Shown: positions 1 to 44,909 of the stretch, piece by piece
Numbering within the stretch: position 1 is the first letter of the stretch
Layout of the letters: every line of letters starts with the position of its first letter
From: an uncultured Solirubrobacteraceae bacterium
GTDB lineage: Bacteria > Actinomycetota > Thermoleophilia > Solirubrobacterales > Solirubrobacteraceae
Direction: 5' to 3'
Assembly (NCBI GenBank): GCA_902806175.1
Contig: CADCVQ010000167.1
Location: 1 to 44,909, forward strand
Length of the DNA: 44,909 nt
Translations under genes and position numbers: made by a program
The notes under the pieces: generated by a model
What the model saw: only the letters and a program-made list of their open reading frames with translations
What the model was told of the DNA's origin: nothing
Databases searched by the model: none

Positions 1-157
1 CAAGTTCTGCGGGTTTTCCGGGCGCCCGATCCGCGCCTGACGTCCGCCGGCGCCCGCCCCCGTGCCACCAGCACGAAGGTCGGACACCGTCGACCGTCAG
101 ATCACGGCCGGGCATCCCGCAAAACCTCGCACAACTTCCGGACGCGCCCACTAGCGC
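1..157. repeat. Long-palindrome repeat element, copy A (left end cut off by the window)
   Basis: Bases 1-108 match the last 108 bases of the window with two adjacent substitutions (81-82). Aligning the copies gives a full element of about 176 bp, of which copy A lacks the first 19. The element is one imperfect palindrome. Its outer ends read GCGCTAGTGG (seen at 44783) and the complement of that sequence at 147-157. The arm at 1-22 pairs with 116-138, and the exact centre is a small hairpin, CGTGC (61-65) with GCACG (71-75) around loop CACCA. No protein is encoded. MITE-like or BIME-like dispersed repeats look like this; the family is not recognised. Confidence 0.8.
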
Positions 158-214: not shown

Positions 215-574
215 TCAATCGTCGAGTTGGAGCGTCCCCGCGCGGAGCTCCTCCAGCACGTACTCGGCGGCCATCGCGTGCAGCCCATCGCCGCAGGCCA
301 GCGCCTCGAGTGCCGCCACGGCGACGTCTGGGCAGAGGTCCAGGCTGCGCGCGGCCGCGAGGACCCGGACGCCGCTGAGCGGATGGTCGATCAGGGCGGC
401 GATTGCGGCGCGGCCCTCCGCCGACGCGCGCAGCTCCCGCGCCAGCCGCGCGTTCTCGTCGAACACCGGGTTGGCGGCGCGCGCGTCGGTGCGCAGCTCG
501 TGCCAGCGCTCGGCGGTCGCCGTGTATGCCGTCAGCAACTCGGCGACGGCGGCCGCAGCAACCGGCCGGCTCAC
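215..574 (-). CDS. DUF2019-like helical repeat protein
   Basis: A 119-residue protein, probably cytoplasmic, with no signal peptide or membrane segment. It is all-helical, with an N-terminal helix (AELLTAYTATAERWHEL) followed by two HEAT-like helical pairs around the motif LIDHPLSGVRVLAAARSLDL. That layout and the 'DHP...VR..AA' signature resemble DUF2019, whose function is unknown. The GTG at 574 overlaps the csoR stop codon (GTGA), so the gene is translationally coupled to csoR and probably lies in the same copper-responsive transcript. A longer in-frame reading upstream is Arg-rich and overlaps csoR, so I rejected it. The family assignment is from motif memory and moderately sure; a role in copper handling is only contextual. 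Confidence 0.7.
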   Translation of the reverse strand: MSRPVAAAAVAELLTAYTATAERWHELRTDARAANPVFDENARLARELRASAEGRAAIAALIDHPLSGVRVLAAARSLDLCPDVAVAALEALACGDGLHAMAAEYVLEELRAGTLQLDD

Positions 575-852
575 CCGCGCTTGACGAGCCGCCCGACGGC
601 GGCCATCAGCTCGTCGGTGCGGTCGGCCTGCAGCTCGCCCTCGGAGCCGAGCACGCACGAGCGCGCGTGCTCGTCGAGCAGGCCGAGCGCGACCTTGTCC
701 AGCGCCGCCTGGGCGGCGGAGATCTGCGTGAGCACGTCGATGCAGTAGCGGTCGTCGACGACCATGCGCTCGATCCCGCGGACCTGACCCTCGATCCGGC
801 GCAGGCGCGCGAGCAGCTGATCCTTGCTTGCGGAGTAGCCTCGTTCAGTCAC
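571..852 (-). CDS. csoR: Copper-sensing transcriptional repressor CsoR
   Basis: A 93-residue CsoR/RcnR-family repressor. These all-helical DNA-binding proteins release their operator on binding Cu(I). The family Cu ligands are present in the usual spacing: Cys37 (YCIDVLTQ), His62 and Cys66 (DEHARSC). The N-terminal LLARLRRIEGQVRGI segment is the standard first helix. I chose GTG at 852 because a -10 box TACGCT (860-865) sits 7 nt before it and the protein then has normal family length; an earlier in-frame ATG at 924 would add 24 residues and run through the operator. The gene diverges from copZ across a CsoR-type palindrome, and is followed by an overlapping DUF2019 gene. Confidence 0.93.
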   Translation of the reverse strand: MTERGYSASKDQLLARLRRIEGQVRGIERMVVDDRYCIDVLTQISAAQAALDKVALGLLDEHARSCVLGSEGELQADRTDELMAAVGRLVKRG

Positions 853-859
853 GACCACC

Positions 860-865
860 AGCGTA
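860..865 (-). promoter_or_regulatory. -10 box of leaderless csoR promoter
   Basis: TACGCT on the minus strand, 7 nt before the csoR GTG at 852. The spacing places the transcription start at or next to the start codon. The CsoR palindrome lies directly upstream, covering the -35 region. Confidence 0.5.
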
Positions 866-869
866 GCAG

Positions 870-884
870 TACCCCTCAGGGGTA
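870..884. promoter_or_regulatory. CsoR operator palindrome
   Basis: TACCCCTCAGGGGTA is an inverted repeat with 7-bp perfect arms around a single central base. It matches the G/C-tract palindromes bound by actinobacterial CsoR. It lies between csoR and copZ and overlaps the predicted copZ -10 box, so one site could repress both directions. Confidence 0.8.
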
Positions 885-888
885 TGCT
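883..888 (+). promoter_or_regulatory. -10 box for the copZ operon
   Basis: TATGCT overlaps the right end of the CsoR palindrome, as expected for a repressed promoter. Transcription would start near 895, about 46 nt before the copZ ATG. Confidence 0.5.
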
Positions 889-894
889 AGCTTG

Positions 895-957
895 ATGCGT
901 GCAGATACCCCCGCCCCGTACCAATCGGACGAAGAGAGCGATGCTTCCAACTCGTAA
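895..957 (+). CDS. Possible 20-residue leader peptide upstream of copZ
   Basis: An ATG lies 6 nt after the copZ -10 box, where a leaderless message would begin. It opens a 20-codon frame rich in Asp, Glu and Ser (SDEESDASNS near its end) that stops with TAA at 955-957, out of frame with and overlapping the copZ start at 941. Translation could couple to, or compete with, copZ. It could equally be chance, since short open frames are common in GC-rich DNA. Confidence 0.25.
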   Translation: MRADTPAPYQSDEESDASNS

Positions 958-1147
958 CTACACCGTCGACGGCATGACCTGCGGGCATTGCCGCAAGTCC
1001 GTCATCGAGCAGGTCCTGCAGGTCCAAGGCGTCAAGGGCGCAGATGTCGACCTCGACAGCAAGCAGCTGACGGTCGCGGGCGAGTCCTTCGAGGACAGCG
1101 CGATCCAGGCGGCGGTGGACGAGGCGGGATACACGCTCGTGTCATGA
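941..1147 (+). CDS. copZ: CopZ-like copper chaperone (HMA domain)
   Basis: A 68-residue single heavy-metal-associated domain, the usual size of CopZ. The Cu(I) site is MTCGHC (Met12-Cys17) in the loop after the first strand (YTVDGMTCGHC), and the rest follows the ferredoxin-like beta-alpha-beta-beta-alpha-beta pattern. It would carry Cu(I) in the cytosol and hand it to CopA. ATG at 941 is chosen because the purine-rich GAAGAGAG (931-938) sits just before it; a GTG at 899 in the same frame would add a Pro/Arg-rich tail absent from the family. The stop overlaps the next gene's start (ATGA at 1144), so this is the first main gene of the copper operon. Confidence 0.9.
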   Translation: MLPTRNYTVDGMTCGHCRKSVIEQVLQVQGVKGADVDLDSKQLTVAGESFEDSAIQAAVDEAGYTLVS

Positions 1148-33902: not shown

Positions 33903-34910
33903 ATGATCGAGAGCTCTGAGACGGCGACGCGGGGCGCTGTCTGCGCCGCCGTCGTCACCTACAACCGCAAGGATCTACTCGTCGAATGCCTCGACGCGCT
34001 GCTGCGCCAGACGCATCGCCTGGAGCGGATCTTCGTGATCGACAACGCCTCGACCGACGGGACCCAGGAGCTCCTGCGCCAGCGCGGCCTGCTCGACGAG
34101 GAGCGCCTCGAGCACGTGCTGCTCGAGCACAACAGCGGGGGTGCCGGAGGGTACGCGCGGGCCGTCGAGGTCAGCCGCGCGCTCGACGTCGACTGGATCT
34201 GGCTGATGGACGACGATGCCGAGCCCTCGCCCGACACGCTCGCGCGCCTGCTGGCCGCGCCGCCCGCCGGCGACGAGGCCACGGCGGCGTTGTGTCCGGC
34301 CGTCGTCAGCCCCGACGGCACGCTGCAACTCGGCGCCCGCGGGACGTTTCACGGCCGTCCGCGACCGCTCGCCCAGCAGGCCTACGTCCACGGCGGTCAT
34401 CCGGAACTCGGCTTCGCGACGTTCGTCGGCATGCTCGTGCGCAACTCGGTGGCGCGCGCGACCGCACCGCCGCGCGCGGACTTCTTCATCTGGGCCGATG
34501 ACTACGAGTGGTGCTTTCGGCTGCGCCGGCACGGCAGCCTGCGCCTCGTTGCCGAGGTCTCGATCCTGCACAAGGACGTCGGCCATGGCTTCGAGACGCG
34601 CCGCTCGCGGCTCATCAACCGCTTCACGCCGCTGAGCTACGGCGCCACGCCGTGGTCTGGCTTCTGGCGCAACATCGCCGGCGTGCGCAACTACGTCTGG
34701 GTCAAGAAGACCTATCTCGGCGAGTCGGCGCTCGGCGCGGTCGGCACCGTCGCGCAGTTCGCGCTCAAGGCCCTGCTCTACGACGAGCGGCCGCTGATGC
34801 GCATCCCGTGGATCGTGCGCGCCGGCATCGACGGGCGCCTCGGCGTGTTTCAGACGATCACGCCGCAGGAGTGGGCGCTGCGCCTGCGCAGCGAGGAGCG
34901 CGCCGGGTGA
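33903..34910 (+). CDS. GT2 glycosyltransferase, galactofuranosyltransferase-like (tandem copy 1)
   Basis: A 335-residue GT-A enzyme: AAVVTYNRKDLLVECLDALL, FVIDNASTDGTQELL, then IWLMDDDAEPSP with DDD at 103-105, and DFFIWADDYEWCFRLRRHG as the acceptor-site acidic motif. All catalytic elements are present. It is a tandem paralogue of the next gene, overlapping it by GTGA, and they share the C-terminal pattern of a WRNIAGVRNY-like helix and an IPWIVRAGIDGR-type end. Two such enzymes acting in turn could build an alternating or branched chain. A TTG at 33894 in frame is another possible start. Confidence 0.9.
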   Translation: MIESSETATRGAVCAAVVTYNRKDLLVECLDALLRQTHRLERIFVIDNASTDGTQELLRQRGLLDEERLEHVLLEHNSGGAGGYARAVEVSRALDVDWIWLMDDDAEPSPDTLARLLAAPPAGDEATAALCPAVVSPDGTLQLGARGTFHGRPRPLAQQAYVHGGHPELGFATFVGMLVRNSVARATAPPRADFFIWADDYEWCFRLRRHGSLRLVAEVSILHKDVGHGFETRRSRLINRFTPLSYGATPWSGFWRNIAGVRNYVWVKKTYLGESALGAVGTVAQFALKALLYDERPLMRIPWIVRAGIDGRLGVFQTITPQEWALRLRSEERAG

Positions 34911-35890
34911 GCGCCCAGCCGCAGGTCTGCGCGGCGGTCATCACCTTCAACCGCAAGGACCTGCTCGTCGAGTGCATCCAGGCGCTCGTGAGCCAGACGC
35001 ATCCACTGGCGCGGATCGTGATCGTCGACAACGCCTCCACGGACGGCACCGAGGACGAACTGCGCCAACGCGGGCTGCTGGCGCGCGCGGACGTCGAGTA
35101 CATCCGGCTGGAGCGCAACATGGGCGCGTCGGGCGGCTTTGCCCGCGGCGTCGGCGCGGCCCGCATGCTCGACACCGACTGGATCTGGATCATGGATGAC
35201 GACGCCGAGCCGCGGCGTGACGCGCTGGCGACGCTGCTGGCCTCGCCGCCCGCCGCCGATCCCGCGACGGTCGCGGTCTGCCCGAAGGTCGTCTACGCCA
35301 ACGGCGAGATCGACGCCAACCAGCGCGGCCACTTCCACCGCCGCCTGCGGCCGCTGGCGGCCGGCGAGTACCGCGCGGGGCACCACCCCGCGATCGGCTT
35401 CTTGTCCTTCGTCGGCGCGCTGGTGCGCACCTCCGCGGCCCGGCAGACCGACCTGCCGCGGGCGGACTTCTTCATCTGGGCCGACGACGTGGAGTACTCC
35501 CTGCGCCTGCGGCGGCGCGGCGAGATCCGCCTCGTCAGCGAGAGCGTCATCGTCCACAAGCGCGTGACGCACTCCTTCGAGACGGCGCGCTCGCGCTTCT
35601 GGAATCGCGTCCTGCCGGTCACGATGTGGCCGACGCCGTACGAGCGCTTCTGGCAGAACCTCTGCGGCCTGCGCAACTACCTGTGGATCAAGCGCGAGTA
35701 CGAACATCAAGGCGCGCTGTCGGCGATCGGGACGACGTTGCAGTTCGTCGTCAAGCACGCGCTCTACGACGACCGGCCGCTGCGCCGCATCCCGTGGATC
35801 GTGCGCTTCGCGCGCGACGGCCGGCGCGGGCGCTTCGTGAACATCCCGCCGGAGCGCTGGGCGCAGATGGTGCGTGACGGGGTCGCCTGA
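34907..35890 (+). CDS. GT2 glycosyltransferase, galactofuranosyltransferase-like (tandem copy 2)
   Basis: A 327-residue paralogue of the preceding gene. AAVITFNRKDLLVECIQALV, IVIVDNASTDGTEDEL, IWIMDDDAEPRRD (DDD 97-99) and DFFIWADDVEYSLRLRRRG are intact. The N-terminus begins directly with the first strand at the GTG 34907, which overlaps the upstream stop. The two copies are alike over their full length but clearly diverged, so this is an old duplication with probable division of labour. It converges with the flippase gene with 6 bp between stops. Confidence 0.9.
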   Translation: MSAQPQVCAAVITFNRKDLLVECIQALVSQTHPLARIVIVDNASTDGTEDELRQRGLLARADVEYIRLERNMGASGGFARGVGAARMLDTDWIWIMDDDAEPRRDALATLLASPPAADPATVAVCPKVVYANGEIDANQRGHFHRRLRPLAAGEYRAGHHPAIGFLSFVGALVRTSAARQTDLPRADFFIWADDVEYSLRLRRRGEIRLVSESVIVHKRVTHSFETARSRFWNRVLPVTMWPTPYERFWQNLCGLRNYLWIKREYEHQGALSAIGTTLQFVVKHALYDDRPLRRIPWIVRFARDGRRGRFVNIPPERWAQMVRDGVA

Positions 35891-43654: not shown

Positions 43655-43957
43655 GTGACCAGGACGCCTGTCGTCGCCGCGACGCTCGTGCTCGCTGCGT
43701 CTGTCGCGACCGGCTGCGCGGGCAGCGGCGTCGTGATCAGCGACGGCACCAACTGCCGGGCGTGGCTGGACGGCAACGGCCGCGATGCCTACCTGCATGC
43801 CCATGGGCTGCGCGGATACGACTCCGGCCAGCGGCCCGCGACGGCGAACGTGGCGCGGGCGCTGACCGACATCTGCGCGCGCGATCCCGCGCTTGCGGTC
43901 GGGGTGGCGCTGCAACGGGCAGCCGGTTCACCGCCACCCGCGCCCCCGAAGAGATAG
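43655..43957 (+). CDS. Small lipoprotein of unknown function
   Basis: A 100-residue protein. From GTG 43655 it begins MTRTPVVAATLVLAASVATG and the lipobox ATGC (Cys21), so it should be lipid-anchored outside. The mature part has two further Cys (NCRAWLDG and DICARDP) that could form a disulfide bracketing a small helical domain with YLHAHGLRGYDSG between; the spacing recalls small HdeA-like folds but the resemblance is weak. The end is Pro-rich (GSPPPAPPKR). It overlaps the -10 box of the next gene. No function is known. Confidence 0.7.
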   Translation: MTRTPVVAATLVLAASVATGCAGSGVVISDGTNCRAWLDGNGRDAYLHAHGLRGYDSGQRPATANVARALTDICARDPALAVGVALQRAAGSPPPAPPKR

Positions 43958-43960
43958 CCT
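43955..43960 (+). promoter_or_regulatory. -10 box before the last methyltransferase gene
   Basis: TAGCCT lies 10 nt before TTG 43971 and overlaps the lipoprotein stop codon. Confidence 0.35.
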
Positions 43961-43970
43961 GGCCGCGAGC

Positions 43971-44789
43971 TTGTCGCTGCCGCCCGCACACGATCGTGAT
44001 CACGTCACGCGGGTCAACGCGGCCTACCACGACGCGATCGTCCAGAAGTACGACAACCGCCTGGAGGCGCATTCCCCCGCCGTCCGCGAGTGGCTGCAGA
44101 ACCTGCTTGCGCGCGAGGTCTTTCCGGCGCTGGATGCCGTCAGCACGACACCCAGGGCAATCGACTTCGGCTGCGGCTCGGGATACCTGGAGGGGTACCT
44201 GGCCGGCCGCGACCTCGATCTCCTCGGGCTCGACGTCTCGGCGAAGATGCTCGACGTCGCCCGTGCCGCGTATCCGCAGTGGCGCTTCGAGCAGGCCGAC
44301 GTCTACGACTTTCAGACCGACGAACGCTTCCACCTCGTCATGGAGAACGCGGTCCTGCACCACCTGGTGGACTACGAACACCTCGTCGACATGATGGCCG
44401 AGCTGACGCTGCCCGGCGGCGTGCTGTTTCTCGGCAACGAGCCCAACCGCCTCGCCTACAGGTACCTGGCGCCGCTCGCGAAGCTCTGGCGCACGACGAT
44501 CAACCGCTATCGCACCGAGGATGCCGAGCACCTGGCCGGCGACGCGAACTTCGAGGCGCTCAGCGAGTACCACCTGTTCTACGGCCAGGGCATCGACGCG
44601 GGGGCGCTGAAGCGGCGCCTGGAGGAGCGCCATGGCTTTCGGCGCGTGACGATCCACTACTCCTTCCGCGAGCTGTTCAGCGCAGTCGAGGAGCAGTACC
44701 CTCGCGTCAGGCTCAACCGCTGGGCGCCGGCGTCGCTGCGCGACGGCTGTCCGCTGTCGCGCAACTTCAACCTCACCGCGCAGCGCTAG
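43971..44789 (+). CDS. Class I SAM-dependent methyltransferase
   Basis: A 272-residue methyltransferase. AIDFGCGSGYLEGYLAG is the SAM motif I, DLLGLDVSAKMLDVAR carries the acidic ribose-binding Asp, and FHLVMENAVLHHLVDYE is the motif IV/V region. The C-terminal 110 residues are a family-specific cap. It could methylate a sugar of the locus or a small molecule; nothing fixes the substrate. The TTG at 43971 is my choice, since no ATG or GTG lies between it and motif I; an ATG at 43893 would overlap the lipoprotein gene heavily. The stop codon is contributed by the repeat element, whose left end (GCGCTAG) covers the last codons. Confidence 0.85.
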   Translation: MSLPPAHDRDHVTRVNAAYHDAIVQKYDNRLEAHSPAVREWLQNLLAREVFPALDAVSTTPRAIDFGCGSGYLEGYLAGRDLDLLGLDVSAKMLDVARAAYPQWRFEQADVYDFQTDERFHLVMENAVLHHLVDYEHLVDMMAELTLPGGVLFLGNEPNRLAYRYLAPLAKLWRTTINRYRTEDAEHLAGDANFEALSEYHLFYGQGIDAGALKRRLEERHGFRRVTIHYSFRELFSAVEEQYPRVRLNRWAPASLRDGCPLSRNFNLTAQR

Positions 44790-44909
44790 TGGACGCGTCC
44801 GCAAGTTCTGCGGGTTTTCCGGGCGCCCGATCCGCGCCTGACGTCCGCCGGCGCCCGCCCCCGTGCCACCAGCACGAAGGCGGGACACCGTCGACCGTCA
44901 GATCACGGC
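44783..44909. repeat. Long-palindrome repeat element, copy B (right end cut off by the window)
   Basis: Second copy of the element at 1-157. It supplies the left end missing there: GCGCTAGTGGACGCGTCCGC, followed from 44802 by the 108 bases shared with copy A. It differs from copy A at 44882-44883 (CG instead of TC), a change that improves pairing with the opposite arm. It begins inside the methyltransferase gene and provides its TAG stop. Confidence 0.8.

What the first reader, a model, noticed from the sequence alone, without database searches (positions are those of the whole stretch)
44783..44909. A 176-bp single-hairpin repeat element bounds the window at both ends
Combining the two partial copies gives one element with outer ends GCGCTAGTGG, about 40-bp imperfect terminal inverted repeats, and a central CGTGC-CACCA-GCACG hairpin at its exact midpoint. 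Mismatches between arms at three places are C opposite C. No coding capacity, a length under 200 bp and full-length palindromy fit a MITE or BIME moved by an enzyme encoded elsewhere. The family is not one I recognise.
Basis: seen in the sequence. Interest (0 to 1): 0.7.

Follow-up and report, generated by a model that had tools for sequence, protein, structure and literature searches.

The report
Order-wide mobile hairpin moved by IS630
Both ends of this DNA piece lie inside copies of a 170-base mobile hairpin without genes, found about 35-45 times in this bacterium's genome and throughout its order; a common kind of transposase (IS630) probably moves it onto gene stop signals, and it keeps a fold that suits one strand only, which hints at an unknown role as RNA.

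Summary
The repeat is real and more than chance. The element is 170 bp, CTAG...CTAG (not 176; the outer GCG is flank), and forms one hairpin over its whole length. The window is contig C167 of a 183-contig draft; its two ends stop inside two different copies. The genome holds about 40 matching places.

It is a MITE of the IS630 family. Its terminal 28 bp match an IS630 element in a related genome at 27/28, and similarity stops there. Five IS630 copies with the same type of ends sit in a same-genus genome. Orthologous sites lack the element, and two show a single CTAG. No cognate transposase was found in this genome itself.

Its ends differ between lineages, its core and length do not, and pairing is kept by compensatory changes. 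In 61 of 111 elements a neighbouring gene's stop codon is the terminal tetranucleotide. One strand carries nearly all wobble pairs (G-U 802, A-C 121). This suggests selection on one folded strand, of unknown function.

The parts
1..154 (-). Left partial copy of the 170-bp element (element nt 17-170 as read on the plus strand); the more stable strand of the hairpin is the minus strand of the window
44786..44909 (-). Right partial copy (element nt 1-124 as read on the plus strand), cut by the contig end; same orientation as the left copy
127..154 (-). 28-bp IS630-type terminal inverted repeat, ending in CTAG (151-154)
44786..44813 (+). 28-bp IS630-type terminal inverted repeat CTAGTGGACGCGTCCGCAAGTTCTGCGG, 27/28 identical to the IS630 element of G033
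61..75 (.). Apical stem-loop CGTGCCACCAGCACG at the midpoint of the left copy
44862..44876 (.). Apical stem-loop CGTGCCACCAGCACG at the midpoint of the right copy
43893..44789 (+). ORF whose stop codon TAG (44787-44789) is the terminal CTAG of the right copy

Best explanation
The element is a non-autonomous IS630-family (Tc1/mariner superfamily) MITE. Shown: IS630-type terminal repeats, many near-identical dispersed copies, orthologous empty sites (a single CTAG at two of them), no IS630 transposase gene inside. Inferred: an IS630 transposase supplied in trans binds the terminal repeats, cuts the element out and inserts it at the TA of CTAG; the TA is duplicated, so CTAG stands at both ends and a TAG stop codon at the site is restored. 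CTAG is rare in this genome and is often a stop codon, so insertions land at gene ends with little harm. The family is an old lineage of the order: length (166-171 bp), full-length pairing and core are kept while the terminal repeats changed between lineages, in at least one other genome in step with that genome's own IS630. Inferred with less certainty (about 0.55): the copied lineage is also under selection to fold as one strand (RNA, or single-stranded DNA), because the wobble pairs lie on one strand only. The most likely role is an RNA hairpin that limits damage by the element or its cleavage, as reported for Correia/NEMIS transcripts and RNase III; this last step is a guess from precedent (about 0.2).
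For: About 40 places in the own genome, young copies 95-99% identical. IS630 element of 1251 bp in G033 with ends 27/28 and 25/28 identical, similarity falling to 4-5 of 12 beyond base 28. Five copies of a related IS in same-genus G001 and one in G020 with the same kind of ends. G036 hairpins and the G036 IS630 share a different end type. Empty sites. CTAG preference and TA duplication are known for IS630 (PMC2170065 and its reference list). Stop-codon placement 61 of 111 against 23 of 95 control CTAG sites, p = 9e-6. Order-wide family by covariance model. Covariation. Strand asymmetry: G-U 802, A-C 121 in 101 elements; 186 against 97 inferred changes; young copies 1 against 4.
Against: No cognate transposase in G000: its only IS630 is about 29% identical and has other ends. 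Six carrier genomes gave no DDE_3 hit at all, G018 (4 contigs) among them. G013 elements end in CTNAG with unequal middle bases, which simple target duplication does not explain. No orientation bias relative to genes (35 against 32), which speaks against a role as sense 3'-UTR. Part of the G-U excess is shared by descent at about 20 columns.
Confidence: 0.87

Rival explanations
1. REP/BIME-like element moved as single-stranded DNA by a Y1 (RAYT or IS200/IS605) transposase, which would explain a fold on one strand only.
For: The one-strand wobble pairs; tetranucleotide at the foot of the hairpin; in 9 of 11 usable elements the stable strand reads against the replication fork (positions, counted by hand, not significant).
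Against: PF01797 absent from G000, G001, G015, G036, G013, G011, G078 and G067; single weak members only in G018, G035 and G028. Ends match IS630 elements and not Y1 elements. REPs are 20-40 bp (abstract of PMC3733652).
Confidence: 0.04
2. A host-useful structured RNA or bidirectional terminator, dispersed and then kept at the 3' ends of genes for its function rather than as a parasite.
For: Stop-codon placement, extreme stability, covariation, one-strand wobble pairs.
Against: Orthologous sites in sister species lack it; no orientation bias; the stop-codon placement is partly explained by the CTAG target, since 24% of other CTAG sites are stop codons; no run of T after the stem was looked for or seen.
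Confidence: 0.12
3. Assembly artefact, or the two ends are one locus of a circular molecule.
For: Both window ends carry it, and several other contig ends stop in it at 127 nt.
Against: More than 20 complete internal copies with unique flanks; the two window copies differ at two positions; the family is present in single-contig genomes of other species.
Confidence: 0.01

Closest known systems
RUP (Repeat Unit of Pneumococcus), MITE linked to IS630-Spn1
   Same: Non-coding, palindromic, IS630-type ends, insertion at TA, high copy number, excess between convergent genes (PMC3049150, PMC2229807).
   Different: RUP is 107 bp, AT-rich, and found in pneumococcus and close relatives; this one is 170 bp, about 70% GC, unrelated in sequence, and spans an order with changing ends and a constant core and length.
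Correia/NEMIS elements of Neisseria
   Same: About 107-155 bp mobile hairpins with TA at the ends whose transcripts pair end to end; RNase III cleavage reported (PMC2229807, PMC2649163).
   Different: Sequence unrelated; the RNA role is only inferred here; no IHF site or promoter was tested.
REP/BIME elements with RAYT transposases
   Same: Dispersed palindromes, tetranucleotide at the foot of the hairpin.
   Different: REPs are 20-40 bp and depend on a Y1 transposase, which is missing here.

Membership tests
IS630-family MITE | Terminal inverted repeats matching an IS630-family element | tested here: met
   27/28 bp with the IS630 of G033, sharp end of similarity at base 28; similar ends in G020 and five copies in G001
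IS630-family MITE | No transposase gene inside, short length | tested here: met
   170 bp, one hairpin over the whole length
IS630-family MITE | Insertion at TA (CTAG) with TA duplication | tested here: met
   Single CTAG in the empty sites of L037 (G001) and L009 (G002), CTAG on both sides of nearly all young copies; TA and CTAG duplication cannot be told apart. G013 copies differ
IS630-family MITE | Mobilisation by an IS630 transposase in trans | not testable with these tools
   Needs a transposition assay; the cognate enzyme was not found in G000
REP/BIME with RAYT | Y1 transposase (PF01797) in the genome | tested here: not met
   Absent from G000 and seven other carriers, one member each in three
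Known structured RNA family (Rfam) | Match to a covariance model above its gathering score | tested here: not met
   No match in the window or in five loci with members
Structured single strand under selection | Compensatory changes in the stem | tested here: met
   40 of 55 pairs with two-sided changes, 0 of 500 shuffles reach it
Structured single strand under selection | Wobble pairs tolerated on one strand only | tested here: met
   G-U 802 against A-C 121; relatedness of copies limits the strength
Structured single strand under selection | Transcription of the stable strand | not testable with these tools
   No expression data available

The most novel reading that the evidence does not exclude
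An ancient, order-wide mobile hairpin whose one folded strand (an RNA of about 168 nt, or single-stranded DNA) is itself under selection for the element's own propagation: core, length and one-strand pairing persist while the terminal repeats change to match the IS630 transposase at hand. It would be a SINE-like parasite of bacterial DNA transposons with a selected RNA.
Probability: 0.3. Interest if true: 0.8.

Novelty: new variant of a known kind. Interest (0 to 1): 0.55.

Why it matters
Bacterial MITEs are usually seen as short-lived leftovers of one insertion sequence, tied to a species or genus. This family has kept its length, core and fold across an order while its ends changed, and it settles on stop codons through the CTAG preference of IS630. 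The wobble pairs on one strand make a selected RNA or single-stranded DNA form directly testable. The window also shows why such repeats break draft assemblies.

Tried and rejected
Circular molecule or artefact: rejected. REP/RAYT: rejected. Known Rfam RNA: none. Orientation relative to the gene that runs into the element: no bias, 35 against 32. Orientation relative to replication: with dnaA placed in G035, G036 and G018, the stable strand reads against the fork in 9 of 11 usable elements (positions, counted by hand), too few to conclude. The end pattern in genome contigs gave no hit. A 20-base core pattern in genome contigs gave a truncated list; of 22 loci then checked with the model only the Solirubrobacter records held true elements, the chance hits served as negative controls. 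A model search of 150 genomes failed technically. Searches for a described family found nothing; only open-licence PMC papers are held, so a description elsewhere may exist.

Full report
1. What is there. The window is contig C167 (44,909 bp) of a 4.12-Mb draft genome in 183 contigs. Its first 154 bases and last 124 bases are parts of one 170-bp element that starts and ends with CTAG. The two window copies are direct repeats and differ at two positions. About 40 places in the genome match; more than 20 are complete with unique flanks, and several contig ends stop inside the element after exactly 127 bases, which I read as assembly breaks at k = 127. Young copies are 95-99% identical; older ones, and a second subfamily with ends CTAGTACAC, are 80-90% identical.

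2. Structure. The whole element is one hairpin: 75 pairs and -138.8 kcal/mol on the minus strand of the window, -99.8 on the plus strand. For the consensus of young copies the energies are -141.5 (z = -15.0) and -107 (z = -11.1).

3. Who moves it. In G033, a genome of the same family, a 1251-bp element with an IS630-type transposase (Pfam DDE_3) has ends CTAGTGGACGTGTCCGCAAGTTCTGCGG and CTAGTGGGCCTGTCCGCAAGTTCTGCGG, 27/28 and 25/28 identical to the element's end; beyond base 28 similarity falls to 4-5 of 12. The same-genus genome G001 has five copies of a related IS and G020 has one, all with CTAGTGGAC ends. In G036 the hairpins have other ends, CTAGTGACCTGACACGG, and the local IS630 has matching ends. 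G000 itself carries only one distant IS630, with other ends. The cognate enzyme is either lost or missing from the draft.

4. Insertion. Flanks of ten own copies were joined and searched in four same-genus genomes. Orthologous sites of five copies lack the element; the site of the L037 copy in G001 reads CTAGGCGATCACG and that of the L009 copy in G002 reads CCTAGACGG, a single CTAG in both. This fits the reported preference of IS630 for the TA of CTAG, with duplication of TA (PMC2170065 and its cited reference). Because CTAG is a palindrome, duplication of TA or of CTAG gives the same sequence. CTAG is rare in the window: 14 found, 117 expected from base composition. In 61 of 111 elements the stop codon of a neighbouring gene is the element's terminal tetranucleotide, in six of them on both sides. 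Of genes that reach three or more bases into the element, 67 end at base 3 or 4 and three go deeper. Other CTAG sites near these loci are stop codons in 23 of 95 cases (genes were predicted by a simple GC3 rule of mine). In the window the ORF 43893-44789 ends with the TAG at 44787-44789.

5. The family. Diverged relatives in other genera turned up first by DNA similarity. A covariance model of 19 members finds the element in 24 of 61 relatives, 17 of 42 genera, in three families of the order, with lengths of mostly 166-171 bp and up to dozens of matches per genome (an element can match on both strands). Among about 50 genomes of other families of the class there was no match. The named records with true matches are Solirubrobacter species, so I take the order to be Solirubrobacterales. 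The terminal repeats differ between lineages (CTAGTGGTCGTCCCC, CTAGTGTCGTGA, CTAGTGACCTGA and others); the core around GTCAGGCG is widely kept and the length is constant.

6. Evidence that one folded strand is selected. On 19 members 91.8% of cells of the 55 model pairs are standard pairs, 40 pairs have changes on both sides, and no shuffle of 500 reaches any measure; slid structures give 33-44%. Complementary arms alone could come from any palindrome. The telling point is the kind of mismatch. With a pairing rule that treats both strands alike, 101 elements show 802 G-U and 121 A-C on the chosen strand, while A-G against C-U and G-G against C-C differ by about three-fold only. All nine clusters show more G-U, although the 75% linkage clusters are coarse. 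Choosing the strand after the fact would not yield about 8 to 1 in nearly every element. Parsimony gives 186 changes from a standard pair to G-U and 97 to A-C. In 14 young own copies fresh changes were 1 to G-U and 4 to A-C, so mutation does not seem to favour G-U; the numbers are small. I infer selection on the folded strand of the lineage that is copied, not on each copy after insertion. Orientation relative to genes is even, 35 against 32, so a plain 3'-UTR role is not supported. Whether the folded strand is RNA or single-stranded DNA, and what it does, is open.

7. Comparison. By mechanism and by the tested features it is an IS630-family MITE like RUP of pneumococcus (PMC3049150, PMC2229807). 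It differs in sequence, in GC content, in its order-wide persistence with changing ends, and in the one-strand wobble pairs. It is not a REP/BIME (no Y1 transposase) and matches no Rfam family. No earlier description was found in the held papers.

8. Limits. The genome is a draft, and the copy number lies between about 35 and 45. Gene calls are mine. The IS630 link rests on sequence; no transposition was tested. Six carrier genomes gave no DDE_3 hit. G013 elements end in CTNAG with unequal middle bases, which I cannot explain.

Noticed in passing
L162, L205-L212 (G013): The hairpins of this genome end in CTNAG instead of CTAG, and the middle base often differs between the two ends of one copy (for example TGA and TAA), so it is not a plain target duplication.
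   Followed up: partly
L014, the 41 bp left of the element (C70 near 32700): A 41-bp palindrome CTAGTGGGCCGCC...GGGCGACCCACTAG, which resembles the end of the distant IS630 at C59 of G000; it abuts the 170-bp element, so elements seem to stack at CTAG sites.
   Followed up: partly
L347 (G006), orthologous site of L009: At the empty site of one copy the sister species has a tiny palindrome CTAGTGGGCCATCCACTAG.
   Followed up: no
L070 5718-5823 (G000 C104:13717-13822): A 106-bp copy with an internal deletion that still has both ends.
   Followed up: no
L039 1464-1685 (G000 C163): A complete element followed directly by a partial second copy, a nested or stacked insertion.
   Followed up: no
G035, G036, G018 elements: In 9 of 11 elements placed relative to dnaA the more stable strand reads against the replication fork; not significant.
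   Followed up: partly
window, whole: CTAG occurs 14 times outside the elements against 117 expected from base composition.
   Followed up: partly
L109, L117, L129, L137, L143: The IS630 transposase of these elements is split into two overlapping frames in several genomes, which suggests programmed frameshifting.
   Followed up: no
window 571-1147: A CsoR-like ORF (minus strand, 571-924) beside a CopZ-like heavy-metal domain ORF (plus strand, 899-1147); looks like a copper-handling locus, judged from motifs only.
   Followed up: no
window 33939-35617: Two adjacent stretches repeat at a distance of 986 bp with 71-73% identity, probably duplicated genes.
   Followed up: no
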